Positions 1-38,553 of a stretch of 38,553 nucleotides of DNA are shown here, piece by piece. Location of the stretch: positions 1 to 38,553 of the IMG/VR virus record IMGVR_UViG_3300032322_002715; one strand, written 5' to 3'. The notes below the pieces were generated by a model, which saw nothing but the letters and a program-made list of their open reading frames with translations, searched no databases and was not told the origin of the DNA. The position numbers and the translations under genes are program-made. This stretch comes from a virus. Position 1 is the stretch's first letter. Every line of letters begins with the position of its first letter.

Positions 1-322
1 AAAATTCACGGATCCAATCTTCGTCGCCATATTTTTCAACAAATTGGTCAAGTGTCATGCGCTCTGCATCTTTGTGCATGGCATGTTTCATTGAACCTTC
101 TAGTATTACTGTTTCGTGAAATTCAGTTTCAAGAAGACCATAGCTTTCAAGAATTGTCATTAACTTTTCATCAGCATACAGCACTACTCCGTCAACTGCT
201 TCTTCACAGATGTACGTTTCCAACAAGTATTCTTCGCGAATGTTGATGGCAAAGTTGTCACCTGTTACTGGAGTGTCTGCAACATACTCGGCTTCAGCAA
301 GATAATCACGCAAACTTTTCAT
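1..322 (-). CDS. Partial protein with a capsid-targeting-like N-terminus, unknown function
   Basis: The minus-strand frame is open from an ATG at 320-322 to the left edge of the window, giving 107 codons with no stop, so the C-terminus is missing. The N-terminus reads MKSLRDYLAEAEYV. This resembles the capsid targeting sequence of T4 internal head proteins (MKTYQEFIAEA type), which ends in an L/I-x-E site for the gp21 prohead protease. The rest is acidic and gives no recognisable fold (it contains ICEEAVDGVVLYADEK and TLDQFVEKYGDEDWIREF). The start lies 4 nt after the stop of the upstream 720-aa gene, with a weak AAAGG at about 8 nt, so it is probably co-transcribed and translationally coupled. 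A role inside the prohead is an inference from the N-terminus only. Confidence 0.7.
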   Translation of the reverse strand, partial: MKSLRDYLAEAEYVADTPVTGDNFAINIREEYLLETYICEEAVDGVVLYADEKLMTILESYGLLETEFHETVILEGSMKHAMHKDAERMTLDQFVEKYGDEDWIREF

Positions 323-326
323 GTTG

Positions 327-2489
327 TTAGCCTTTGTACTCTTTCCAAGAATTAGTCAAAGCAAAAATACTTTCTTCAACTTTTTTCTCTTCTTTGTCTT
401 TGACTGCTTTTTTAAAAGCTTCTTTTTTGTCACCGTCTTTATCTACATCTAAAAAGTCAGGTTTCTTGGCTTCTTTGATGCCGGCCATTTCGCGTATTCT
501 ACGTAATTCTTCATCACCCATGCGATCATCCTGGCCTGCAATAACAGGAACTGTGGTTTGACCTGTGCTCTTGGGGCCATTGAGTCCACCTGCAAAACGT
601 TGTAGGTCGGGATCGTCTGCGCCCACGATTTCTGGCTCAGGTGAATTTTCTGGTTGATTCTCATCCAATTCTTTACAGCCACATGGAGCTTCATTGCATG
701 TTGGGCATGACTCAGTAGCACCCTCATGTCCGCCGCCAATGCCAGCCATTTTTAACAGTGTGACCAATTTCACAGCATCTTCGTCGGTGGCTGTTACAGT
801 CACACTCTGTGTGGGACCGTCTGGGTTGTCACTCATGTTCATGCTGACATTCATGCTTTCAGCAATCATGCTTTCAAGTTCACGATTCATGCTATCATAG
901 ATACCTTTGCCAAACTGCATGCCACCCTTGCCCTTGCTCTTGGGAGCTTCGGCAGCAGGAGCCACATTGCCGGCCACGGTGGTTTCTTCAACTTCTTCAG
1001 CCTTTTCCTTTTTCTTTGGCAGGCCTTTGTGCTTGGTCTTGGCAAACTTTTCTAGTTCTTTTTCTGGCATCTTGCTCATTTCAGATGCGGCACCTTTGCC
1101 TGCGGGTTTTTTGCCTGCACGCTTGGCTGCCAATGCAATACCAGCGGCCTGTTGTTGTGCCTTGCTCACAGCTTTTTCAGCAATGGGCTCATCAGCATCA
1201 GCTTTGCTGGACTTCATGTAGTCACGTGCTGTGTCAATGTAGTCCATGGCCTTGGTAATTTTGCTTTGTACCCACTCTGGCAGATTCTCTTCGTCACTGA
1301 GGATTGAATGTAATTCTGTTGCGGCTGCCTCAATAGTATGTAACTGCTCTTTGGCCATGTCGCCTTCGCGATCATATTCGCCACGGTCAACTATTTGATC
1401 TTGGTCTTCCATGGGTCCAAAATCACCATACTCATCCACTTTCTTTTTCTTTGTGTACGCAGTGCGATCAGCCTTGCGACTTTTTGCTGTCACACGTTCT
1501 TGTCGTGGGTTGTCGTCTGTGTATTTCTTGGGACGTCCGCGGCCGCGTTTTTCAGCCTTGTCATCGTCGGTCTTGGTTTCGCCTGTGTCAGGATCATAGT
1601 CACGTGTGTGGCGTAAACCTGTGGCAGTCTTGGTCACAGTGCCTTTGTGAGTTTTGCGAGTGCTGCCCACTTTCATGTCATCTTTTTCTTTGTCTTTGAC
1701 ATATTTGAGCATTTCGTCCCAACCTTCATCTATGTCGCCTGGATTTTCACCGCGCATGCGAGCCAATCCCTTGGGATCGCTAATGTTACGCAAACGATCA
1801 GCTTCTAGATCTTTTTGTGATACTTTCCAGTTGCCGCCTTGAGCCTTGCGTTGGTATGCTGGTACATCCACTTTTTTCACTGGCGATACTGGGGCATTGG
1901 TTTCACGTACAGTCTCCATGTCGCCATCACCGTCAAGGTCGGCTTTCTTCAAACCTGCGGCACGAGCTTTTGCAAGATTGCCTGTAAACCGGTTGCCTTC
2001 TTCTACATCAGCCTCGTCCATTTTGTCATGACGAGCACGAATCTTTTCCATCTTGCTCTTGCTGGCGCCTTCACGACCGGCTTTTTGTAGAGCCTTCATG
2101 CCAGTCTCACCGTATTTCTTTTTGCCTAGATATGCTTGTAATGCTGACTCATCTGTTTTTCCTTGTTGGGCATCAAAGTCTTTGAGTTTGTCATTGAGAT
2201 AATCCATGACATCACCTTCTGGCTCAACACTTTCCTTGGCACGCAGTTTGGCAAGCACAGCACCAGCCACTTTCTCACCACGCTCTTTGCTGCCATAACG
2301 CTCACCAGCCGATTTAGCAATCTTAGCAAACTGCTTACCTGGCTTGCCAATGTCTTTGCCAGCACGAGCCTTCTTGGCTGAATAGTCGCCGGTAGCACGT
2401 TCAGCCACAGCACTTTCGGATAATTGCTTGGATTCTTGTTTGCTGGCCACTTCAGCCAAGCGTTTGTTTAGGTCATAAAAAAATGTCAT
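327..2489 (-). CDS. 720-aa charged protein with AT-hook and EF-hand-like loops, probable internal head/virion protein
   Basis: The protein is very rich in Lys, Glu, Asp and Ala and looks largely helical or disordered. Visible elements in order: RLAEV near residues 10-14, possibly a gp21-type L-x-E site; a calcium-loop-like DLDGDGDMETV at 184-194; an AT-hook RGRGRPKK at about 315-322; a helical segment at about 382-426 containing LPEWVQSKITKAMDYI, which I remember from marine T4-like phage proteins; a Cys cluster CPTCNEAPCGC in the last third; and a second loop DVDKDGDKKE at 681-690. Further possible gp21 sites are MIAES and GIKEA. The ATG is preceded by AGGA at 8 nt and lies 4 nt after the preceding 202-aa gene. 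I see no enzyme motif. A scaffold/core or DNA-associated internal protein is inferred; a precise function is not known. Confidence 0.8.
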   Translation of the reverse strand: MTFFYDLNKRLAEVASKQESKQLSESAVAERATGDYSAKKARAGKDIGKPGKQFAKIAKSAGERYGSKERGEKVAGAVLAKLRAKESVEPEGDVMDYLNDKLKDFDAQQGKTDESALQAYLGKKKYGETGMKALQKAGREGASKSKMEKIRARHDKMDEADVEEGNRFTGNLAKARAAGLKKADLDGDGDMETVRETNAPVSPVKKVDVPAYQRKAQGGNWKVSQKDLEADRLRNISDPKGLARMRGENPGDIDEGWDEMLKYVKDKEKDDMKVGSTRKTHKGTVTKTATGLRHTRDYDPDTGETKTDDDKAEKRGRGRPKKYTDDNPRQERVTAKSRKADRTAYTKKKKVDEYGDFGPMEDQDQIVDRGEYDREGDMAKEQLHTIEAAATELHSILSDEENLPEWVQSKITKAMDYIDTARDYMKSSKADADEPIAEKAVSKAQQQAAGIALAAKRAGKKPAGKGAASEMSKMPEKELEKFAKTKHKGLPKKKEKAEEVEETTVAGNVAPAAEAPKSKGKGGMQFGKGIYDSMNRELESMIAESMNVSMNMSDNPDGPTQSVTVTATDEDAVKLVTLLKMAGIGGGHEGATESCPTCNEAPCGCKELDENQPENSPEPEIVGADDPDLQRFAGGLNGPKSTGQTTVPVIAGQDDRMGDEELRRIREMAGIKEAKKPDFLDVDKDGDKKEAFKKAVKDKEEKKVEESIFALTNSWKEYKG

Positions 2490-2493
2490 TACT

Positions 2494-3102
2494 TTATCCT
2501 CGAGGTTTGGCGCCAGTGGCTGGTTTGGCCGGGCGATTGATTTTGGTCATGGGACTGGTGGTGCCAGTTTTGAAATCGTTTGTGGTCACAGCCGGACGTG
2601 TTTTACCTCCGGCCACGGTGAAGTCACTGCGATGGGCATTTTTCAGTACCACATGGTCATGTGGCTCGGCTGAATAATCTTTGCTGAGAGCCCGTTGTTC
2701 TGCATCAGGTGCAGGATAGTCAGTGTCAGCCAACAGGTCCTTGTTGAGTTCTTCAATCTTTTTGTACTCGTCAGCCATGCTGTCGTTGTAGTCACGAGTG
2801 CTCATGCGAATACGATTTGGATCGCCACCCAGCACCTGAAACAGTTGTTTGATCTGTGGTTCAATGGCTGGATAACGAAAACTGGCATCAAACATCAACA
2901 CTGATTCATTTGTGAAATCTGGAAAGTCAGTGGGAATAGGTTGCACTGGTGTGGTGCGTTCATCGCCGATGCGCACTGGATCAAATTGTTCCAGGCGTTG
3001 TTTCAACAAACGAACTGAATCTGTGGGTGGTCGACCACAGATTTTGATTCGATAATCATAGGTGCGTTCGCTTTCAGCGAGATATTTTGCAAATGGTTTC
3101 AT
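2494..3102 (-). CDS. 202-aa protein with capsid-targeting-like N-terminus, unknown function
   Basis: The N-terminus MKPFAKYLAESERTYDYRI again matches the T4 capsid targeting pattern (M-K-x-aromatic-x-x-aromatic-hydrophobic-A-E), with a potential gp21 cut after YLAE. The following RTYDYRIKICGRPP and the compact middle section look like a folded domain. The C-terminal 60 residues are polar, Pro- and Lys-rich and probably flexible. I remember similar proteins as conserved hypotheticals of aquatic T4-like phages. It has its own late-type promoter 17 nt upstream, inside the end of the terminase gene, and an AGGA Shine-Dalgarno at 7 nt. It is followed by the 720-aa gene with a 4-nt gap. It may be an internal head or prohead protein, but that rests only on the N-terminus and position. 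Confidence 0.8.
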   Translation of the reverse strand: MKPFAKYLAESERTYDYRIKICGRPPTDSVRLLKQRLEQFDPVRIGDERTTPVQPIPTDFPDFTNESVLMFDASFRYPAIEPQIKQLFQVLGGDPNRIRMSTRDYNDSMADEYKKIEELNKDLLADTDYPAPDAEQRALSKDYSAEPHDHVVLKNAHRSDFTVAGGKTRPAVTTNDFKTGTTSPMTKINRPAKPATGAKPRG

Positions 3103-3119: not shown

Positions 3120-3127
3120 TATTTATT
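3120..3127 (-). promoter_or_regulatory. T4-type late promoter AATAAATA
   Basis: On the minus strand AATAAATA (T4 consensus TATAAATA, 7 of 8) ends 17 nt before the ATG at 3102. An AGGA Shine-Dalgarno lies between the two. The predicted leader is about 10 nt. Confidence 0.6.
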
Positions 3128-3608
3128 CTTTTTTGTCGTTTTGACTATTGCGTTTGAGAATTTGTTCCAACAAATCATTGCGACTCAACACCACACCTGT
3201 ACCAGCTTGAGTAGGCACAGCTTCAGGTTGATTTTGGTCCAGGCGCATTTTCTTCAACTGCAAATCAATCATTTTGAGTTTTTTGTCCAATTTGGCTGTT
3301 TTGGCAGTTATGGCATGTCCCAACATGTTGCTGGCCACTCCAAATATTTCGGCAGCAAATCTAGAATCCACCTGCATGCCCAGATCCATGAGATCGTTGT
3401 AGCTGCTCTTGGCTAGATCTGCCAGTTCGTCCATTTCGGTGTCAGTGGCTTCGAGTCCGCGCACTGCGGGCAAGGCAGTATCAATTTTGTCTATGACCTC
3501 GTCAAGAGCCACAATGGTGTTGCGGTTTTCTTCTAGGGCAGGAATAGCGGAATCAACTTCTTGGGAAGTGGGCGGTAAATCAAACAGTTCTTCAAGTTTG
3601 CGTGACAT
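3123..3608 (-). CDS. gp16: Terminase small subunit, gp16-like
   Basis: At 161 aa it is close to T4 gp16 (164 aa). The N-terminal third is acidic. The central helical part contains YNDLMDLGMQVDSRFAAEIF and NMLGHAITAKTAKLDKKLKM, which aligns by eye with the central region of T4 gp16 (helical, ending in MTTTNREILKLHKDMKDI). The C-terminus is basic and polar. In T4-like phages gp16 forms rings that recognise DNA and regulate the gp17 packaging motor. The gene follows gp4 by 15 nt and precedes the 202-aa gene. No gp17 gene is in this window, although 16 and 17 are adjacent in T4. No Shine-Dalgarno is visible; a GGTAAATA element lies 4 nt before the ATG. Confidence 0.75.
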   Translation of the reverse strand: MSRKLEELFDLPPTSQEVDSAIPALEENRNTIVALDEVIDKIDTALPAVRGLEATDTEMDELADLAKSSYNDLMDLGMQVDSRFAAEIFGVASNMLGHAITAKTAKLDKKLKMIDLQLKKMRLDQNQPEAVPTQAGTGVVLSRNDLLEQILKRNSQNDKKE

Positions 3609-3623: not shown

Positions 3624-4055
3624 TTATCGACCACCCATGTGAAACATGTCCGATTCAGTGATAACTCTAAAGGTCATGCCATTGCGTCGGGCCCACTTGG
3701 TGGCCGCGTCCCATTTGGCATAATTCACAGCAACAACAGCACGTTCGCGGCTGGTCATTTTGTCTTCAACCACGCTTTGTTTTTTGGGTTTGATTTCAAT
3801 CAGTTCAGCCCGCACTGTGTTGTCTCTGGTCCGATAGGTAATTAAAAAATCTGGCACATAGTTGGTCATTTTGCCAGTTATGGGATTGCGATAGGGTATG
3901 GCTATGCTTTCGCTGGCCCACTGCAGAATGTTTTCATTGCTGTCACAAAACCGCATGAAACTGTGTTCCCAGCCCGAGCGGTATCTGGGAGTACCACGTC
4001 CCACGTATTTTTCCCCGTTTTGAACTGTGTATTGACCCTGTGCCCACTTCTTCAT
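3624..4055 (-). CDS. gp4: Head completion protein gp4-like, PD-(D/E)xK nuclease-like fold
   Basis: At 143 aa it is close to T4 gp4 (150 aa). It shares the sequence plan RYRSGWEHSFMRFCD, WASESIAIPY, NYVPDFLITY, ELIEIKPKKQ and a basic C-terminal helix ending KWARRNGMTFRVITE. T4 gp4 finishes the DNA-filled head before neck attachment. The residues E30, D69 and E87-x-K89 form a PD-(D/E)xK-like active-site set, as in T4 gp4 and TnsA-type nucleases, so a nuclease-derived function at the packaged DNA end is plausible. The ATG overlaps the TGA of the upstream 119-aa gene (ATGA), which indicates translational coupling. gp16 follows after 15 nt. Confidence 0.85.
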   Translation of the reverse strand: MKKWAQGQYTVQNGEKYVGRGTPRYRSGWEHSFMRFCDSNENILQWASESIAIPYRNPITGKMTNYVPDFLITYRTRDNTVRAELIEIKPKKQSVVEDKMTSRERAVVAVNYAKWDAATKWARRNGMTFRVITESDMFHMGGR

Positions 4056-26026: not shown

Positions 26027-29000
26027 TTATCCTAGTGCTATTGCCAGTGCTACAGCGTCTGCCACGGTTGCAACCTGGGAACCTGCAATATTTATGGTGC
26101 TGTTTGCGTTGATGATGTTTGCTGTGATATTGCCCGAAGCCACAATGTTTCCTGCAAAAATAGCACCAACTACGGCCACTGGACCGCTGATATTTCCGGT
26201 GGCTATGAATCTTCCAGTGACATCTAAATCCCGTGTAGTAGTTAGGTTATCTACAAATAGATCTTGCTGTATGGTCATGCCTGAGCTCATTACAACATCG
26301 GGAGTTATTGTAATGGCACTGCTGTCGCCACTGTCAATCAAGGTGGTAAAAATAGGCCCGTAAACACCACTAGTGCCCAATACATTGCCACCGCTGACAT
26401 TGGCTGCTGATACTATGTTTCCTGTGGCGGTGATTCTTCCACTAGTAGACACATTTCCACTTATAACATTTCCAGCCGCAGATATCAACCCAGCTGTGTC
26501 AATGTTGCCGCCAGTTATATTACCGGTTACTGTGACAAGACCTGCAGAAGTTAAGTTGCCACCTGTGATATTTCCTACTATGCTGGCCAAACCTGGTGAA
26601 TTGATGTTTCCGCCGGTTATGTTTCCTGTGGCAGTTACCACACCTGCAGTGTTTACGTTGCCACCAGTGACATTTCCAGTAGATATGATCTGTGCGCTGG
26701 TCAATAAATTACCGCCAGATATGTTGGCAGTGCCAGCTGATATGTTTCCTATGGCAGTTATTATGCCGCCAGTAATCAAGTTTCCACCAGTGATATTTCC
26801 AATAGCACTGATTTGCGCACCACTTAGTACATTTCCACCTGAAACATTTCCTGCGTTTGTTTCAATATTGCCAACCACACTTACACGTCCGCCCACATTG
26901 ACATTGCTGGTAGCGCCGTTGGTGGCAAAAGTACCCGAAATACTCAGTGCATTTGTGGTTGAATCAAAAGTGAATCCTGTGCTTTGCCCAACAATACCGT
27001 TGTTGTTGAATAGAACTTGAGTGTTGCTGCCAGCACCCAAACTTATGTTACCTTGCAAATTACCAATAAAAGTTGGGGCAATTACATTGGTGGCACTGAG
27101 AATATTACCAGCTGAAGAAATCAAACTGGCGCTGTTGATATTGCCACCAACAACATTTCCTACAGCACTGACCACTCCCACAGTGTTGATATTTCCACCA
27201 GAAACGTTGCCGCCAGCATCTACCAGACCTACCACGCTGATCAAACCATTGGTGTTGATATTCCCACCAGTGATATTGCCCACTGCTGTGACCAAACCGC
27301 CTGTTATGACATTGCCACCAGTGACATTTCCTGTAGCACTGACTGTGCCCACAGTGGATACATTGCCCAGACTTGCTGTTCCTGTGACTGTTAGTGTGCC
27401 TGCGGTGACTAAATTTCCACCAACCACGTTGGCAGTGGCGCTGACTTGTCCAGATGTTAGTATGTTGCTACCAATTATGTTGGCGCCAGTGATATTTCCG
27501 GTACTGGACACAACACCACCGGTTCTTAAGTTTCCGCCAATCACATTGGCAGTGGCACTGACTGTGGTGGCCTGCACCAACACAGTGTTTACGTTACCGC
27601 TGTCTACATTACCAGTCGCACTGATCAACCCAGGTGTGAGTAAATTTCCACCAGTAATGTTGCCAGTTACCGGAAGTGCGCTGACCACATTGCCAGTTAA
27701 ACTAATATTGACAGTGTTTACATTGCCACCAGTGATATTGCCCACTGCTGTGATCAAACCTGGTGACGATATGTTGCCACCGGCTATGTTACCAGTTACA
27801 TTTAAAGCACTTAACACGTTGCCAGTTAAACTGAGTCCAGCAGCGTTGAGGTTGCCGCCACGTATATTTCCTGTTGCTGAAATTAAACCAGGTGTTTGTA
27901 TGTTTGCACCATCAATGTTTCCAAGTGCAAAAAGATTACCATTGCTGTATAAATTTCCACCTTCAATATTGGCAGTGGCAAAAATAGCCCCGGTTGCAAA
28001 AATATTACCACCATCTATGTTGCCAATGGTGAAAATATTACCACCATCTATGTTACCAATGGCAGTCAAAGTATCAACTTGAGCAGTGGTTGTGGTTATT
28101 GAAGTGCTGTAGATTCCGTCAGTGGCATTCACGTTACCGGCAGTAACGTTTCCAATCACATCTGCTGTGACCACATACAGGGCGCCATCAATGGCATCCA
28201 ACAACAGACTGCTGTCGTCTGCAAACACACTGCCTACTAAATCGCCCAAAAACTTGGTGGCAGTGGCTGTGCCCATAGTAGTGATGTTCCCACCAAGTAT
28301 GTTTCCAACTGCGCTTACTTGCCCTAAACTATTGATATTACCAGTGACAATATTTCCTGTTACACTGAGACTGGTCAAAACTCCCACGTCTGTGGCAATA
28401 ACACCAGTCAACAAACTTCCGTTGCCTATAAAATAATTTGCTGTGACATTGCCAGTGGCAGTGATCAATCCTGCTGTGGCAATATTTCCACCTGTGATGT
28501 TTCCTGTAGCTGTCAGCAAACCACCTGTTATCAGGTTACCGCCAGTGACATTTCCAACTGCTGTGACAACTCCAGTTGTATCAATGTTGGCACCAGCTAT
28601 GTTTCCAGTGGCTGTGATCAACCCACCAGTTTGTAGGTTGCCACCAATCACATTGCCTGTGGCTTGAACATTACCAAGAGAAACAATTTTGCCACCGGTT
28701 TCAATGTTGCCACCTGTGATATTGCCTACACCACTTATTGTGCCCGCAAAGTTAACACCAGTTGGGGTAAACACCACAGTGTTTGCAACTCCTGACACTG
28801 TGACTGACACATTGCCATTTGCATAAGTTTGTACATTTGTGTTGCCGTTGCTTATAACTGTGGTATCAATTCCGGTAAGTTGACTTCCGTTACCAAAGAA
28901 ATAATTGCCAGTAATATTGCCAGTGGCACTGACTTGACCTATGGTACGCAAGTTACCGCCAGTGACATTGCCGGTACCTGTCAAGGATGCGGCATTGACT

Positions 29001-32000
29001 GCGCCTAGATCTATCACGCCATAGCTGTTGATAGTTACTATTTCGTTGGCAACACTGACATTGCTGGCAATGAATAAATTGCCCGAAGCATTTTTGAATC
29101 CAAAAAAAGCACTTTCTTCTTGCGTGTCAAAATACCAGAGTTGTGTGCCACGATCTTTGCCATCATCTACCAGCAAGGGTGCATTGTTAGGGCCACGACC
29201 AAGACCAATTATGGGGTCTTTGACTGCCAAAGAAGTGACGTTGATGTAACTGAGATTGCCGTTTACAAATAAGTCACCACCAACTATGACGTTGCCAGTG
29301 GTGGTCATAGTGGTTGTAGTTACTGTGCCCAAGGACTCTATGTTGCCGCCGGTGACATTGCCAACAAAGCTGGCAATGCCGGCCAGATTAATATTGCCGC
29401 CACCGTATTCAACAGCGTCTACTGTGATTCCGTAAATGGCTCCGTCAATGGCATCAATGATCAGAGTTGAATCATCTGCAAATACGCTACCTACCAAATC
29501 ACCTACAAAGCGTGTGGCTTGCATGTCACCCAAGGTGATTATGTTGCCACCAGTGACATTTCCGGTTGCACTGACTTGACCTATGGTTGTAATATTCCCA
29601 CCCACAACATTGCCAGATGCAGACACTGTAACACCGGTAACAGTGTCTACTGCAACTAAATTACCACCGCGTATGTTGCCCACAGCACTGACTAACCCAC
29701 CAGTGTTGATGTTGGCACCAGTGACATTGGCTGTGGTTGTTATGGCCAAAGTTGTATTGATGGGACTTATAATGTTGCCGCTTAGGCTTAGATTAGTGGC
29801 ATTTAAATTGGTGGCTGTAACATTGCCAGAAACTGTGGCCTGCGACGCAAACAATTGATTATCTACAGCATCAACCATTATGGTTGAATCATCAGCAAAC
29901 ACACTACCTATCAAATCACCACGGAACTCAGTGGCTGTGACTGTGTTTGTGATATTGGCATTGGCTCCAAACAAGGTTCCAACAGCAGTGATGTTAGTGG
30001 TGGCTACAACATTGCCGCCTGTTGTTAAATTGCCGCCTGTGACGTTGCCGGTGGCTAAAACTTGTCCTAGTGTGGTTAAATTTCCGCCCACAACATTACC
30101 AGTAGCACTGACAGTGCCGCCTGTGTTTAAATTTGCGCCAAGAATATTTCCTGTGGTGTTAATATTACCACCAATAATATTGCCTGTGGCAGTTATCAAG
30201 CCTCCTGTAATAATATTGGCACCTGTTACATTGCCAGATGTGTTTATATTTCCGCCTGTGACGTTGCCTGTGGCAGTAATTAGACCGCCTGTGGCAATAT
30301 TGGCACCTGTTACGTTGCCTGCAGCACTAATAGTGGTTGATGCCTGAAGCGAATTGGTTTGTAAAAGATTGTTAACCACTGCATTGTCAACAAATAACTT
30401 GTTGTCTACAGCATCAATGATCAGTGTGCTGTCATCAGCAAATACTGATCCAACTAAGTCGCCTTCAAAACGCACAGCACTCAAAGTATTGTTGACTACT
30501 ATGTTATCACCAGTTATGGTACCAACTACACTGAGGCCACCCGAGTACATGGTTATGACCCCAGGTACTCCACTGATATTGCCAACAATGTTGCCGTCAG
30601 CTATGGGCACATTGAGTTCAGTGGTGCCTTGAGAAATCTTTTGTGCAGACCCCACATTGGAACTAGCAGTTACTCCAGTAAGACCGGCTCCGTTACCAAT
30701 AAAGATACCGTTGATGGCTGTGATATTACCAATGGCCGTAATAGAACCAGTAGCACTGATGTTGTTGGCATTTACTAGCCCGGCTGTGTTGATGTTGGCG
30801 CCACGAATATTACCAACTGCGCTGACTATGTTTGTAGCATTTAAGTTGCCACTTGTGACGTTGCCTGTGATTGTGGCTGTGGTTGCAGTCAAACTGTTGA
30901 CTGCATTAACATTGTTGGCATTTACGTTGGACACAGCACTAACATTGCCGGCTGTGTTGATGTTGCCACCTGTGACGTTGCCTGTGGCTGTGACTATGCC
31001 GGCAGTGACAAGATTTCCACCGGTTACATTACCTGTGGTATCAACATTGCCGCCAACAACATTGCCGGTAGCGGACACAACGCCCGTAGTGTTAATGTTG
31101 CCGCCAATGACGTTGGCTACAGCCGATACAACACCTGTGGTAGTAACATTTCCGCTTATTGCATTGCCTGTGGCACTTAATGTGGTTGCGTTTACAGTGG
31201 TTGCAGACACCGTAGTGGCTGAAATTTGTCCTGAAGTTACAAGATTCCCACCTATAACATTACCGGTAGCACTTACAGTGCTTGCCTGTACTAGATTTGA
31301 AGCAACCACGTTGGTGGCAAGAACATTTCCTGTGGTTGTCAGCGTGGCGCCTTGTACTACACCCACAGCAACAACATTGCCACCAATGACATTGCCTGTG
31401 CCTGAAATATTACCACCAATGACGTTGCCTGTGGCTGACAAATTTCCTGAAGTTGAAATTCCCTGAGGTGTAGCATCAAGTATGTTACCTACCCCGCTGA
31501 CGATACCACTGATGTTGCCATTTACGCCCGTGATACTCAACACTGTGGTGCCGTTGCCCAACTGGGTGGCATTGACATTGCCAGTCACTGTGACATTAGA
31601 TAGGAATCCTCCATCACCAATAAAATATCCTGTTGTAATAACATTGCCTGCCGCACTGACAGCACCTGTAGTAGACAAGCCGGATGTTCTGACTGTGCCA
31701 GTGACATTGGCATTGCCAAGAATATTTCCAGACAAACTGAGAGTGTTAGCATCAATTCTACCAGTGGTGGAAAGATTTCCAACTGTGGCATTGCCTACTG
31801 CACTCACGGAACCTAAAATATTAGCATTGGCATTGAACTGTGAATCTTGTAAAGCTGTAAAAAATCCTGCCTGTATGGGGCCAGTGTTCGTGGCCAAATA
31901 ACCAGCCACATTGGCGTTGCTGTACTGCGCGGGCAAACCAGTCAAGAAAGCACCGTTGCCCAACAAATAAGTTCCTGCCAAGTTACCAAATGCTGTTAAA

Positions 32001-32797
32001 TTACCACTGGTAGTAAGTTGACCAGTGACATTCATGCCTGTGGTGTTTATAACTACTCGAGTAGCACCAGCTACACCAATGTTGACATTGCCATTCAGTG
32101 TGGGTATGACTACGTTACTTGTGCCGTTGCTTATGGAGTTGCCACCCACATCGCCTGTGCCAGCAATGACAAAACGTCCACCTTGCTCGTTGGTGATAGT
32201 TACTGCTGTAGCATTGGATGTGATTGATGCTGTGTTAAGATAGAGTCCGTCACCGCTAAAATAACCATCATTCCAGCGTGCTGAAGGACTACCTAGATTG
32301 TAAACATTGTCTGCAGAAGGCAACAAATTACCAGCAAGTGTTGTGGCAAATCTGCTGAACACCGCAGTATTACTGGTATTCTGAATGTTTATGGTTACAT
32401 TGCCACCCGAAGTGACTTGGACGTTGCTGGTACCATTGACTAGATTGGGGCTGGGGGCAGCCACAACCCCGGTAAGACCGCTGCCGTTACCTACAAAATA
32501 TGCGGCATATACTGTGTCAAATCTCTGCGCAGGGCTACCAATATCATGCACTGCGTCTATATTGGGCAGGAACGAACTGTTGACTTGTATAACACCAATG
32601 CCATTGGCCGCAATTATGATATTGCTGTTAATGCCGTTGACTGTGATGGTATTGTTGGCAATTACAACATTACTACCTACCGGACCGGCGGTGTAGATTT
32701 CTGTAAAATTTTCATTTACAGCGTTGAATGCACTTCTAAGTTGTTCGCCAGTGCCGTCATTGGCTTGAGCGCCAATGTTGATAATTTGTTGTGCCAT
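26027..32797 (-). CDS. Giant 2256-aa repeat tail fibre
   Basis: The N-terminal 40 residues (QQIINIGAQANDGTG, then RSAFNAVNENFTEIY) are a virion-attachment-type module common in T4-like phage fibres. After VGNGSGLTGV and GNGAFLTGL modules, about residues 265-2150 consist mostly of 17- and 10-residue repeats around GNVTGGN. These are interrupted by four copies of a GDLVGSVFADDS module and one large module near residues 1200-1290 with DPIIGLGRGPNNAPLL and KDRGTQLWYFDTQEESAFF. The C-terminal 100 residues are non-repetitive. A long trimeric beta-structured shaft is expected. A GGTAAATA late element lies 21 nt upstream; the Shine-Dalgarno is weak. It leads an operon with the 110-aa and 1224-aa genes. 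Repeat collapse during assembly is a risk. Confidence 0.85.
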   Translation of the reverse strand: MAQQIINIGAQANDGTGEQLRSAFNAVNENFTEIYTAGPVGSNVVIANNTITVNGINSNIIIAANGIGVIQVNSSFLPNIDAVHDIGSPAQRFDTVYAAYFVGNGSGLTGVVAAPSPNLVNGTSNVQVTSGGNVTINIQNTSNTAVFSRFATTLAGNLLPSADNVYNLGSPSARWNDGYFSGDGLYLNTASITSNATAVTITNEQGGRFVIAGTGDVGGNSISNGTSNVVIPTLNGNVNIGVAGATRVVINTTGMNVTGQLTTSGNLTAFGNLAGTYLLGNGAFLTGLPAQYSNANVAGYLATNTGPIQAGFFTALQDSQFNANANILGSVSAVGNATVGNLSTTGRIDANTLSLSGNILGNANVTGTVRTSGLSTTGAVSAAGNVITTGYFIGDGGFLSNVTVTGNVNATQLGNGTTVLSITGVNGNISGIVSGVGNILDATPQGISTSGNLSATGNVIGGNISGTGNVIGGNVVAVGVVQGATLTTTGNVLATNVVASNLVQASTVSATGNVIGGNLVTSGQISATTVSATTVNATTLSATGNAISGNVTTTGVVSAVANVIGGNINTTGVVSATGNVVGGNVDTTGNVTGGNLVTAGIVTATGNVTGGNINTAGNVSAVSNVNANNVNAVNSLTATTATITGNVTSGNLNATNIVSAVGNIRGANINTAGLVNANNISATGSITAIGNITAINGIFIGNGAGLTGVTASSNVGSAQKISQGTTELNVPIADGNIVGNISGVPGVITMYSGGLSVVGTITGDNIVVNNTLSAVRFEGDLVGSVFADDSTLIIDAVDNKLFVDNAVVNNLLQTNSLQASTTISAAGNVTGANIATGGLITATGNVTGGNINTSGNVTGANIITGGLITATGNIIGGNINTTGNILGANLNTGGTVSATGNVVGGNLTTLGQVLATGNVTGGNLTTGGNVVATTNITAVGTLFGANANITNTVTATEFRGDLIGSVFADDSTIMVDAVDNQLFASQATVSGNVTATNLNATNLSLSGNIISPINTTLAITTTANVTGANINTGGLVSAVGNIRGGNLVAVDTVTGVTVSASGNVVGGNITTIGQVSATGNVTGGNIITLGDMQATRFVGDLVGSVFADDSTLIIDAIDGAIYGITVDAVEYGGGNINLAGIASFVGNVTGGNIESLGTVTTTTMTTTGNVIVGGDLFVNGNLSYINVTSLAVKDPIIGLGRGPNNAPLLVDDGKDRGTQLWYFDTQEESAFFGFKNASGNLFIASNVSVANEIVTINSYGVIDLGAVNAASLTGTGNVTGGNLRTIGQVSATGNITGNYFFGNGSQLTGIDTTVISNGNTNVQTYANGNVSVTVSGVANTVVFTPTGVNFAGTISGVGNITGGNIETGGKIVSLGNVQATGNVIGGNLQTGGLITATGNIAGANIDTTGVVTAVGNVTGGNLITGGLLTATGNITGGNIATAGLITATGNVTANYFIGNGSLLTGVIATDVGVLTSLSVTGNIVTGNINSLGQVSAVGNILGGNITTMGTATATKFLGDLVGSVFADDSSLLLDAIDGALYVVTADVIGNVTAGNVNATDGIYSTSITTTTAQVDTLTAIGNIDGGNIFTIGNIDGGNIFATGAIFATANIEGGNLYSNGNLFALGNIDGANIQTPGLISATGNIRGGNLNAAGLSLTGNVLSALNVTGNIAGGNISSPGLITAVGNITGGNVNTVNISLTGNVVSALPVTGNITGGNLLTPGLISATGNVDSGNVNTVLVQATTVSATANVIGGNLRTGGVVSSTGNITGANIIGSNILTSGQVSATANVVGGNLVTAGTLTVTGTASLGNVSTVGTVSATGNVTGGNVITGGLVTAVGNITGGNINTNGLISVVGLVDAGGNVSGGNINTVGVVSAVGNVVGGNINSASLISSAGNILSATNVIAPTFIGNLQGNISLGAGSNTQVLFNNNGIVGQSTGFTFDSTTNALSISGTFATNGATSNVNVGGRVSVVGNIETNAGNVSGGNVLSGAQISAIGNITGGNLITGGIITAIGNISAGTANISGGNLLTSAQIISTGNVTGGNVNTAGVVTATGNITGGNINSPGLASIVGNITGGNLTSAGLVTVTGNITGGNIDTAGLISAAGNVISGNVSTSGRITATGNIVSAANVSGGNVLGTSGVYGPIFTTLIDSGDSSAITITPDVVMSSGMTIQQDLFVDNLTTTRDLDVTGRFIATGNISGPVAVVGAIFAGNIVASGNITANIINANSTINIAGSQVATVADAVALAIALG
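26345..32000. repeat. Long imperfect 51/30-bp coding repeat array in the 2256-aa fibre gene
   Basis: More than 5 kb is built from diverged copies of the same 17-codon unit found in the 1224-, 622- and 186-aa fibre genes. The array is broken by the DLVGSVFADDS modules near 30.45, 29.9, 29.47 and 28.2 kb. Boundaries are approximate. Confidence 0.75.
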
Positions 32798-32858: not shown

Positions 32859-34727
32859 TTAGTTGGTTCTGGTGTAGTTGAGGAAGGAACCAGTTTTTAC
32901 GGTTAAATTAGCTATGGAAGTTTGGAACCTCATGCTCACTGTGACGTTGGCATTGTGTGTAAAAATTCCAGATATTCTCAGAGTTCTTGCATCAGTGCCA
33001 GTGCTGCTGTAGGTTGTGGTCACATTGTCGCTGGTGGTTTTTGTGGCCACGCTCAAGGCTGAAGTTGACGTGGTCTGTATTTGTGTGGTATATGTACAAC
33101 TACCTGCGCTGAAATTCACCGCGGGGGATACTGTGGTGCTGCCATCGGGTACCAGTATGATATAGGCATCAAATCTATAGGCCTGATTGGCTATAGCATT
33201 GAATTGCAAGCTACCAATGGTTTCTGGAGTGGCCGAGCTCAATACATAATCGGTGCTTTGATACACAATGTTTTCAACGTTGATTCCGTTGCCGCTCAGC
33301 AAGCTTGAAACGCTGATGTTTCCGGCTGTTACATTTGCAGTTGTAGTGACATTGCTTGTGGTATTGATTGGTGCAAGCACGTTGCCAGTTAAACTGAGAT
33401 TTACAGTATTGATGTTCCCGCCAGTGATGTTGGCTGTGGTCGTAATGGCGCTGGTGGTGTTTATTGGGGTCAATACATTGCCACTCAAACTCAGTGCGCC
33501 GGTGCTGACATTACCACCGGTGATATTTCCAGTAACCAGCAAAAGATCAGTGTAAATTGAGTTGTCTACAGCATCAACAATCAAGGTTGAATCATCTGCA
33601 AACACGGATCCCACCAAATCACCTTGAAATCTAGGCGAAGTGACTCGTGTTGTGGCTGTGACATTGGCGCCTGTGATATTGCTGCCAGAAATATTGTTGG
33701 CTCCTACCACGTTGCCCAACAAGGATACGTTGCCAACGGTAAAAAATCCTGTGGCAGCTATGACCAAATCACCGCTTGAAATATTTCCAGTGGCAGAAAT
33801 TTGGGAGTTTATATTGAGATTACCGCCGGTGATGTTGCCTACAGTGCTGATACCAGCGGTGCCTGCACCCAAAAATCCCGCAGAAATAATATTACCACCG
33901 TTGATATTGCCCGTGGCAGATACTAGTCCAGCAGTTCTCAAATTACCGCCTTGAATATTGCCAGTGGCCGTGGCCGATCCTGCTGTGATTAGATTACCAC
34001 CGGTGATGTTGCCCACTATAGTTGCTGTGCTGCTGCCATATATGGTGCCTTGCACTGTGAGCAAGTTTACTGGAGCCACATTGCCAATACCCACGTTACC
34101 AGTGCTGAGCACTGTGAGCTTGGCTGTTGCTGCCGCACCATTGGTAGAAGTCAAAATCTGCACATTGGCATTGCCCAGCGTGCTTTGGGCTATAGATCTA
34201 ATCGCAGATGTCACACGCGGACTACCGCCTACCCCGTTGTTGGTGAACCACTCAATGGCTCCAAGAACCTGTCCATCACCAATCACTGTATCGGTGTCTG
34301 TAAATCTTATGGTGGGTTGAGCCACACTGGCATCTCGAGTGATCCACACATTGCCTGTGGTGTTGAGATTTGCGCCATCAATGTTGCCAGAAAAAATCAA
34401 GTTGCCACCGGCCACGTTGCCTGTGGCACTGAGATTGCCGGTTATATCTAGACCCGTGGTGGTAAACACTGCCACGTTGGGAACTCCGCCTACGGTGATG
34501 TTGGCACTGCCACTGGGTATGGGTATGCTGAAATTTGTGGTGCCATTAAAGATGTGATCGCCAGCTATGTTACCGGCTAAACTGGCATTACCAGTTACAG
34601 TGAGATCACCGTCAATGATAAACGAATTTACATCCACGTTACACACTGTGGTGGTGATATCTATTGTGTCCCCGGCGTTAGTAGTACGTATGACGTAATC
34701 GCCGCTGATTCGTTTTACCGTTGTCAT
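32859..34727 (-). CDS. 622-aa repeat tail fibre
   Basis: The N-terminus (MTTVKRISGDYVIRTTNAGD, FIIDGDLTVTGN) is a typical start for this phage fibre class. Residues of about 95-440 carry GNITGGN-type repeats, one segment (about 135-215) with IRFTDTDTVIGDGQVLGAIE, and one RFQGDLVGSVFADDS module near 355-380. The last 150 residues are a separate domain, with QAYRFDAYIILVPDGSTTVS, SGIFTHNANVTVSMRFQTS and FLNYTRTN, resembling C-terminal caps that sit at the tip of phage fibres. It starts directly after the stop of the glycosyltransferase-like gene with AAGGA at 7 nt, under a perfect TATAAATA late promoter. It is probably a short fibre or a partner of the 2256-aa protein. Confidence 0.83.
   Translation of the reverse strand: MTTVKRISGDYVIRTTNAGDTIDITTTVCNVDVNSFIIDGDLTVTGNASLAGNIAGDHIFNGTTNFSIPIPSGSANITVGGVPNVAVFTTTGLDITGNLSATGNVAGGNLIFSGNIDGANLNTTGNVWITRDASVAQPTIRFTDTDTVIGDGQVLGAIEWFTNNGVGGSPRVTSAIRSIAQSTLGNANVQILTSTNGAAATAKLTVLSTGNVGIGNVAPVNLLTVQGTIYGSSTATIVGNITGGNLITAGSATATGNIQGGNLRTAGLVSATGNINGGNIISAGFLGAGTAGISTVGNITGGNLNINSQISATGNISSGDLVIAATGFFTVGNVSLLGNVVGANNISGSNITGANVTATTRVTSPRFQGDLVGSVFADDSTLIVDAVDNSIYTDLLLVTGNITGGNVSTGALSLSGNVLTPINTTSAITTTANITGGNINTVNLSLTGNVLAPINTTSNVTTTANVTAGNISVSSLLSGNGINVENIVYQSTDYVLSSATPETIGSLQFNAIANQAYRFDAYIILVPDGSTTVSPAVNFSAGSCTYTTQIQTTSTSALSVATKTTSDNVTTTYSSTGTDARTLRISGIFTHNANVTVSMRFQTSIANLTVKTGSFLNYTRTN
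33290..34440. repeat. Imperfect 51-bp coding repeats in the 622-aa fibre gene
   Basis: These encode the same GNVTGGN repeat family as the neighbouring giant fibres, with fewer and more interrupted copies. Boundaries are approximate. Confidence 0.65.
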
Positions 34728-38082: not shown

Positions 38083-38553
38083 TTAGGAGAACGAAAGGTT
38101 GCTTACAGCGATCTCACCAACATAGTCGCCAGCGTTACCAAACGAACTTGCAGTGTTTGTAAGTTCGATGTAACCATAACGTGTCATAAATGATACGACT
38201 GGCTCAAATGTTGTTGGATCAAGAACAACACCACTGCTCATCAATGGAATGTATGGGCAGTAGAATGCTGGAGCATCAGCTTCGCTTGTGCCCTTGTAGC
38301 CAACCAACACAGGTGTTGTGTCGCTTGCATAGCTGTCAACAAACACACGCATAGCACCGTTGAGTGTACCAACAAACTTGGTGTTTGTAGGTGCTTCAAA
38401 TGTGCCTTCTGTTGTGCGTGCAAAAGCAGAAGTTGTTGCAGATTGCAATACTGTGAGTGCAGCAGAGCTAACAACAGCATAGTTACCAGCGCCACGACGT
38501 GTACGCTGAGCGATCAAGTTAGCAACGCGGTTGATCAACACTGCCAAAGCGGC
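38083..38553 (-). CDS. gp23: Major capsid protein gp23-like, C-terminal part
   Basis: The frame is open to the right edge, so the N-terminal part is outside the window; 156 codons are seen. RTRRGAGNYAVVSSAALTVL, FVGTLNGAMRVFVDSYASDT, VLVGYKGTSEADAPAFYCPY, IPLMSSGVVLDPTTFEP and SFMTRYGYIELTN reproduce the C-terminal domain of T4 gp23 (RRGAGN...GTLNG-x-M-x-V-F-V-D...FYCPY-x-P...F-x-x-K/T-R-Y-G). gp23 forms the hexamers of the head after gp21 cleavage. A strong intrinsic terminator follows, fitting a highly expressed gene. In T4-like genomes portal gp20, protease gp21 and scaffold gp22 usually precede 23, so they are expected to the right of this window. Confidence 0.94.
   Translation of the reverse strand, partial: AALAVLINRVANLIAQRTRRGAGNYAVVSSAALTVLQSATTSAFARTTEGTFEAPTNTKFVGTLNGAMRVFVDSYASDTTPVLVGYKGTSEADAPAFYCPYIPLMSSGVVLDPTTFEPVVSFMTRYGYIELTNTASSFGNAGDYVGEIAVSNLSFS

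What the first reader, a model, noticed from the sequence alone, without database searches (positions are those of the whole stretch)
1..3102. Cluster of genes with T4-type capsid-targeting N-termini
The partial gene ending at 322 (MKSLRDYLAEAE) and the 202-aa gene (MKPFAKYLAESE) share an N-terminus that fits the T4 internal-protein capsid targeting sequence (MKTYQEFIAEA-like), including an L-x-E site for the gp21 protease. The 720-aa protein between them has RLAEV near its start and further L/I-x-E sites. This looks like a block of proteins packaged inside the head and possibly injected with DNA. Such effectors are poorly catalogued in aquatic T4-like phages.
Basis: partly seen in the sequence, partly recalled or inferred. 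Interest (0 to 1): 0.68.

Follow-up and report, generated by a model that had tools for sequence, protein, structure and literature searches.

The report
Predicted head-targeting tags on phage proteins
Two proteins at the edge of this uncultured giant-phage contig begin with the same ten-residue address tag that phage T4 uses to pack proteins inside its head, and comparison with many relatives makes it likely that they are built into the new head and clipped there, although nobody has yet shown this by experiment.

Summary
The 202-aa gene (2494-3102, -) and the cut-off gene (2-322, -) do begin with T4-type capsid-targeting sequences (CTS). In eight related contigs (1,504 ORFs) the extended pattern hits 27 N-termini: 22 lie within nine genes of the 202-aa gene, four are the prohead protease itself, one is elsewhere (internal Met: 8/7,664). 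In T4 the same search finds only ipII, ipIII and 61.1. In 102 relatives of the 202-aa protein the near-invariant residues include 4, 7, 8 and 10, the four that direct targeting (4, 7) and processing (8, 10) in T4 IPIII. Relatives whose capsid region is present carry a gp21-type protease, and their scaffold and major capsid proteins show matching LxE sites. A T4-like late promoter precedes the 202-aa gene. Its homologue in cultured phage PA5oct is recorded as virion-detected by ESI-MS/MS. So packaging is likely. Cleavage is predicted but unproven: PA5oct, RaK2 and Phosso keep positions 4/7 but lose E10. Injection and effector function are untested, and the 202-aa protein is conserved like a core head component. 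The 720-aa protein lacks a conserved CTS. The lineage is RaK2/Atu_ph07-related jumbo phage. Known mechanism, new uncatalogued families.

The parts
2494..3102 (-). 202-aa gene with T4-type CTS (MKPFAKYLAE|S); phrog_14802 'virion structural protein' (E 1.2e-5); ferredoxin/S6-like domain predicted
3073..3102 (-). codons 1-10 = predicted capsid-targeting sequence; predicted cut after Glu10 (codon 10 ends at 3073)
   Evidence: position logic from PMC9026906
3120..3127 (-). AATAAATA, T4-late-promoter-like octamer at -25 of the 202-aa gene; [TA]ATAAATA present at -25/-26 in 68/117 relatives against 62/1599 other genes
2..322 (-). first 107 codons (cut by contig end) of the 'FAINIRE' family protein with CTS MKSLRDYLAE|A; full-length relatives (155-650 aa) end in the HVA1-type basic Cys module
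293..322 (-). codons 1-10 = predicted capsid-targeting sequence of the partial gene
327..2489 (-). 720-aa low-complexity protein (DUF3008, AT-hook-like, DxDxDG loops) between the two; conserved N-terminus MTFFYDLNKRL but no conserved LxE; not a CTS protein by this test
3123..3608 (-). 161-aa conserved neighbour (context; syntenic in RaK2, PA5oct, CBB)
3624..4055 (-). gp4-type head-completion/closure protein (context)
38083..38553 (-). C-terminal part of gp23-type major capsid protein; its N-terminal site and the gp21-type protease lie beyond the contig end

Best explanation
The two genes encode proteins addressed to the inside of the assembling head by a T4-type capsid-targeting sequence (CTS). 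They are made late with the head and tail genes; the 202-aa gene has its own T4-type late promoter. The ten-residue N-terminal helix docks on the gp22-type scaffold core, mainly through residues 4 and 7. When the prohead matures, the gp21-type serine protease (Peptidase_S77) cuts after Glu10 at [FY][LI]xE, leaving the mature protein inside the head. The 202-aa protein, conserved in single copy beside gp4 across jumbo-phage lineages, is most likely a core head-interior protein. The second tagged gene here, and the MRAxEFIxE proteins that follow it in relatives, are more likely accessory cargo that may enter the cell with the DNA. Shown: the sequence pattern, its family-wide conservation and genomic restriction, the protease and substrate sites in relatives, the promoter, and the record that a homologue is in PA5oct virions. 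Inferred: docking, cleavage, location inside the head, injection.
For: (a) The pattern is confined to this locus and the protease in 1,504 ORFs, with one exception. The T4 positive control returns ipII, ipIII and 61.1 only. (b) 102 non-redundant 202-aa homologues: F4 in 96, Y7 in 101, L8 in 99, E10 in 101, while residues 3, 5, 6 and 9 vary; in T4 IPIII residues 4 and 7 direct targeting and 8 and 10 processing (PMC9026906). (c) Otherwise unlike proteins carry it: clustering without the first 14 residues gives four families. In the MRAxEFIxE families E9 is kept in 147/148 and many residues after it are highly variable. (d) Peptidase_S77 in 7 of 9 records, six close relatives and RaK2 (the two without it also lack the capsid gene), and in 13/15 further contigs; its own N-terminus is [KR]YLRE in many. 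(e) The major capsid protein has [RK][RK]YLKE|NAS near residue 42, and the gp22-type scaffold has the strongest [LI]xE enrichment of ORFs >=150 aa in G001 (z 4.8). (f) Late-promoter octamer. (g) PA5oct gp282, a homologue (E 6e-15), is marked ESI-MS/MS 'structural protein'. (h) In Atu_ph07 the homologue starts MKTLQDYLTES once its start is corrected.
Against: No proteomics exist for this phage. E10 is lost in homologues that keep positions 4 and 7 (RaK2/K64-1 ILTD, Phosso YLSS, PA5oct YYDA), so cleavage is not universal; in T4, Asp10 blocks processing but not targeting. The peptide leads into a conserved stretch (YxYRIK), so part of its conservation could be structural. The proteins are not basic like T4 internal proteins (mature median pI 7.7 and 5.1). 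The window's own protease lies off the contig.
Confidence: 0.75

Rival explanations
1. The N-terminal decapeptide is an ordinary conserved amphipathic helix of a structural protein (for example a neck or head-completion part); it neither targets to the core nor is cleaved, and the LxE is incidental.
For: The peptide is followed by a conserved strand (YxYRIK) and AlphaFold makes residues 4-11 a helix, with low confidence. E10 is lost in PA5oct, RaK2 and Phosso while the helix stays. The gene sits beside gp4 and tail genes.
Against: The same pattern is on several otherwise unlike proteins of the locus and on the protease, is followed by variable residues in the MRAxEFIxE families, and its near-invariant positions include those mapped functionally in T4.
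Confidence: 0.16
2. The tag is a sorting signal for another site, such as the tail, baseplate or tail fibres: the tagged genes sit between the tail tube/gp4 genes and fibre-like genes.
For: Gene order.
Against: Outside the locus the tag recurs on prohead-core proteins: the protease here, and scaffold-like proteins in CBB and PA5oct under a looser pattern. In T4 the same pattern marks head-internal proteins.
Confidence: 0.07
3. Chance or shared ancestry: unrelated N-termini that happen to match, or one recently duplicated leader without function.
For: The pattern is short, and matches in related genomes are not independent. The 123- and 128-aa families share a C-terminal tail and may be paralogues.
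Against: Internal-Met control 8/7,664 against 27/1,504. Tag copies within one genome use different synonymous codons. P1 Glu conserved in 101/102, 72/73, 75/75 and 20/23 members.
Confidence: 0.02

Closest known systems
T4 internal proteins IPI/IPII/IPIII with their capsid-targeting sequence (Mullaney and Black 1996, as reviewed in PMC9026906 and PMC3012670)
   Same: Ten-residue N-terminal tag in the same register (K2, aromatic or Leu 4, aromatic 7, Ile/Leu 8, Glu 10), a gp21-type protease, the same tag on otherwise unlike proteins, T4-type late promoter.
   Different: No similarity beyond the tag. The 202-aa protein is conserved, single-copy and near neutral, whereas T-even internal proteins are small, basic, highly variable and mostly dispensable. 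Several genes downstream use a variant tag MRAxEF[IVL]xE, one residue shorter.
RaK2 ORF047 / K64-1 gp053 / CBB gp210 / PA5oct gp282 / Phosso gp408 / Atu_ph07 gp113 (includes phrog_14802)
   Same: Homologous to the 202-aa protein; the RaK2, CBB and PA5oct genes stand in the same gene order after gp4 and the 161-aa gene; positions 4 and 7 keep a hydrophobic or aromatic residue in all.
   Different: The processing residue varies: E10 in Atu_ph07 and CBB, D10 in RaK2/K64-1, S10 in Phosso, A10 in PA5oct.
T4 gp21 prohead protease (Peptidase_S77, PF03420) and its short N-terminal propeptide
   Same: Homologue in relatives with N-terminal LxE; the T4 review proposes that the gp21 propeptide may act like a CTS (PMC9026906).
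   Different: In this lineage the protease leader ([KR]YLRE) is nearly the same as the cargo tag; the window's own copy is off the contig.
Phage P1 DarB capsid signal (PMC9024508) and giant-phage SPN3US head propeptides (PMC5694885)
   Same: N-terminal signals that bring proteins into the head.
   Different: Other sequences and lengths (P1 signal between 9 and 30 residues with no shared consensus; most SPN3US propeptides far longer, motif AxE).

Membership tests
T4-type CTS-bearing internal head protein | N-terminal ~10-residue CTS of the MKTYQEFIAE type | tested here: met
   Strict pattern in both window genes; 10/1504 N-termini and 0/7664 internal Met in the lineage; T4 control.
T4-type CTS-bearing internal head protein | Conservation of the targeting (4, 7) and processing (8, 10) positions | tested here: met
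   F4 96/102, Y7 101/102, L8 99/102, E10 101/102; function of positions from PMC9026906. Processing position not kept in RaK2, Phosso and PA5oct.
T4-type CTS-bearing internal head protein | Same tag on otherwise unrelated proteins of one phage | tested here: met
   Four families after removal of the first 14 residues.
T4-type CTS-bearing internal head protein | gp21-type (S77) protease in the same genome | tested here: inconclusive
   The 38.5-kb fragment stops inside the capsid gene, so its own protease could not be seen; found in 7/9 and 13/15 related records.
T4-type CTS-bearing internal head protein | Protein present in the virion | not testable with these tools
   No virions of this phage. 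The PA5oct homologue is recorded as ESI-MS/MS-detected; RaK2 gp051 near the orthologous gene is stated to be MS/MS-identified.
T4-type CTS-bearing internal head protein | Cleavage after the Glu of the tag | not testable with these tools
   Needs semi-tryptic peptides or Edman degradation.
T4-type CTS-bearing internal head protein | Injection into the host with the DNA | not testable with these tools
   No data.
T-even internal-protein group (IPI/II/III-like, basic, highly variable) | Basic, rapidly varying accessory proteins | tested here: not met
   202-aa family: mature pI median 7.7, mean identity 69% against 76-80% for gp4 and tail tube; single copy in 15/15 further contigs.
phrog_14802 (head and packaging, virion structural protein) | Profile match | tested here: met
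   E 1.2e-5 over residues 2-76; the homologues hold the same place in the gene order.
Peptidase_S77 / LxE cleavage system in this lineage | Substrate sites in scaffold, major capsid protein and protease | tested here: met
   gp22 [LI]xE z 4.8, first of ORFs >=150 aa in G001; YLKE in the capsid protein; protease N-terminus.

The most novel reading that the evidence does not exclude
A large, uncultured aquatic jumbo-phage lineage keeps a dedicated cargo locus: a conserved anchor protein followed by a changing set of tagged proteins (FAINIRE and MRAxEFIxE families, the latter absent from 50,697 phage records and from Pfam/PHROGs) that are packed in the head and delivered to the host. In it targeting and proteolytic release evolve separately: anchor homologues in RaK2, Phosso and PA5oct keep the docking residues but have lost the cut site.
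Probability: 0.35. Interest if true: 0.72.

Novelty: new member of a known kind. Interest (0 to 1): 0.52.

Why it matters
If true, a ten-residue tag lets one read, from sequence alone, which of the hundreds of unknown proteins of a giant aquatic phage ride inside the head, much as the signal sequence did for T-even internal proteins, all three of which in T4 are now known to block type IV restriction enzymes (PMC12373910). It names specific uncatalogued families to test for anti-defence or take-over functions, and it offers natural variants at position 10 (E, D, S, A) that separate targeting from cleavage.

Tried and rejected
(1) 720-aa protein as CTS cargo: rejected; LxE not conserved, [LI]xE count not significant. 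(2) Domain contrast: the HVA1-type C-terminal module in S77-positive and S77-negative phages: a CTS-like start in 1 of 4 S77-positive phages (C48C1, MKKFKQYIDE) and 0 of 4 S77-negative ones; too few to conclude, and the full N-terminus of the Melnitz gene was not seen. (3) Structure: the 202-aa model is moderate (pLDDT 69); Foldseek gives ribosomal S6/ferredoxin-like folds, a common fold without functional meaning, and uncharacterised phage proteins including Atu_ph07; the 123-aa model was too poor to use (pLDDT 58). (4) Host: no relative of the 202-aa protein in bacterial or archaeal genome contigs. (5) RaK2 genome scan: no genuine CTS hit, explained afterwards by its ILTD variant, so the strict pattern under-reports distant relatives. 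(6) PHROG/Pfam names for the FAINIRE and MRAxEFIxE families: none informative. (7) PA5oct gp281 as a homologue of the 720-aa protein: same place, homology not shown. (8) The RefSeq label 'virion structural protein' for RaK2 ORF047 could come from automatic annotation; the MS table is a supplement I could not open, so it is not counted as evidence.

Full report
WHAT THE WINDOW IS. The window is a whole IMG/VR virus record of 38,553 bases, a fragment. Its minus-strand block runs: tail sheath, two tail-tube proteins, a 119-aa protein, a gp4-type head-closure protein, a 161-aa protein, the 202-aa protein, the 720-aa protein and the cut-off gene. The other end holds the C-terminal third of a gp23-type major capsid protein. 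The gene order matches jumbo phages RaK2, PA5oct and CBB. The tail-tube protein is closest to Atu_ph07 and Sinorhizobium phage Phosso among isolates. So this is an uncultured relative of the RaK2/Atu_ph07/PA5oct jumbo phages.

THE OBSERVATION. Both N-termini are as reported. To test chance I called ORFs (own heuristic caller) in seven related contigs of 115-364 kb plus the window. A wider pattern hit 27 N-termini: 22 within nine genes of the 202-aa gene, four at the N-terminus of the prohead protease, one in an unrelated 219-aa gene of G004; the internal-Met rate was 8/7,664. Related genomes are not independent, so the p-value should not be taken literally; the confinement to one locus plus the protease is the stronger point. 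In T4 the same pattern, run over six frames, returns ipII, ipIII and gene 61.1 only.

FAMILIES. Of 1,331 unique ORFs around the latter two sets, 275 carry the tag, and after removal of the first 14 residues these fall into four families. The same holds around the 202-aa relatives (145 hits, four families). The 123- and 128-aa families have no match in 50,697 phage records and none in Pfam or PHROGs.

POSITIONS. In 102 non-redundant 202-aa homologues positions 3, 5, 6 and 9 vary (1.8-2.2 bits) while 2, 4, 7, 8 and 10 are nearly fixed: F4 96, Y7 101, L8 99, E10 101. In T4 IPIII, substitution at residues 4 and 7 affects targeting, 8 and 10 processing, and Asp10 blocks processing but still allows targeting (PMC9026906). 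Distant homologues fit this split: Atu_ph07 MKTLQDYLTES (after correcting its start, which has a ribosome site), CBB MNKLQKILTEL, RaK2/K64-1 MINLQKILTDN, Phosso MKNFYEYLSSV, PA5oct MKSFRDYYDAS. All keep hydrophobic or aromatic residues at 4 and 7; RaK2/K64-1, Phosso and PA5oct have lost Glu10. I therefore claim targeting with more confidence than cleavage.

PROTEASE AND SUBSTRATES. A gp21-type protease (Peptidase_S77) is present in 7 of 9 records, RaK2 included; the two without it also lack the capsid gene and are fragments. It is present in 13 of 15 further contigs, all 15 of which carry the 202-aa gene once. Where the start is clearly called, its N-terminus is an LxE leader, often [KR]YLRE. 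The major capsid protein carries [RK][RK]YLKE|NAS near residue 42. The gp22-type scaffold has the highest [LI]xE enrichment of ORFs of 150 aa or more in G001 (18 sites against 7.0 expected, z 4.8). In CBB and PA5oct a looser pattern hits the scaffold-like protein beside the protease. Protease leader, capsid leader and cargo tag thus share one consensus.

EXPRESSION AND VIRION EVIDENCE. A T4-late-promoter-like [TA]ATAAATA lies at -25/-26 of the 202-aa gene in 68 of 117 relatives, against 62 of 1,599 other genes; the tail sheath gene has 14 of 18, while the 720-aa, FAINIRE and MRAxEFIxE genes have almost none, which suggests one late unit starting at the 202-aa gene. PA5oct gp282, a homologue (E 6e-15), is annotated 'structural protein, ESI-MS/MS', and so is the next gene. 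RaK2 gp051, near the orthologous gene, is stated to be MS/MS-identified.

THE 720-AA PROTEIN. Its N-terminus MTFFY[DN]LNK[KR]L is very conserved, but the LxE is not, and the number of [LI]xE sites is not significant. It is a mosaic of short modules, DUF3008 among them. It may be a virion protein, since its positional counterpart in PA5oct is, but not by this tag.

WHAT REMAINS OPEN. Nobody has shown that these proteins are cut, lie inside the head or are injected. The 202-aa protein is conserved almost like tail proteins (69% against 76-80% mean identity) and near neutral; this argues for a core head-interior role rather than an arms-race effector. The FAINIRE and MRAxEFIxE families are better candidates for accessory cargo.

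VERDICT. A real, well-delimited signal; the mechanism is a known one (T4 CTS and gp21 protease) on new protein families in an uncultured jumbo-phage lineage.

Noticed in passing
L141:9394-10149 (Atu_ph07 NC_042013.1 84393-85148, -): Annotated start of gp113 is about 30 codons too far downstream; the upstream ATG gives MKTLQDYLTESKK with a ribosome site and GATAAATA upstream.
   Followed up: yes
T4 NC_000866 18966-19130 (gene 61.1): T4 gene 61.1 (54 aa) begins MKTFKEFIKE and fits the CTS as well as ipII/ipIII; to my eye the following residues resemble the gp23 cleavage region. Possibly an unrecognised CTS-bearing T4 protein.
   Followed up: no
S-SM2 GU071095 49522-50103, 91376-91804, 130761-131987: Only three N-termini of this cyanophage fit the pattern (MKTLGQFLAE, MKTLKQFLKE between gp16 and gp17, MKSFFQFLSE); candidates for packaged proteins in cyanophages.
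   Followed up: partly
L002 10270-11024 and relatives: 123- and 128-aa MRAxEFIxE proteins: hundreds of places in IMG/VR, none in 50,697 phage records, no Pfam or PHROG family.
   Followed up: partly
L058 13718-14155, L068 15124-15561, L002 11021-11455: Small protein with a signal-peptide-like N-terminus and a thermonuclease-like start (VIDGDTV) next to the tagged cluster in relatives.
   Followed up: no
G004 85774-86433 (-), in L147: 219-aa protein starting MKAREFITE outside the locus, the only scattered hit; weak DUF6934 match.
   Followed up: no
window 26027-32797 (-): 2,256-aa protein without any PHROG match; a neighbouring 622-aa protein (32859-34727) also has none.
   Followed up: no
L082 12554-13099 (RaK2 ORF048): Annotated 'Hsp70 heat shock protein' in RefSeq, but the 181-aa sequence does not look like Hsp70; name probably wrong.
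   Followed up: no
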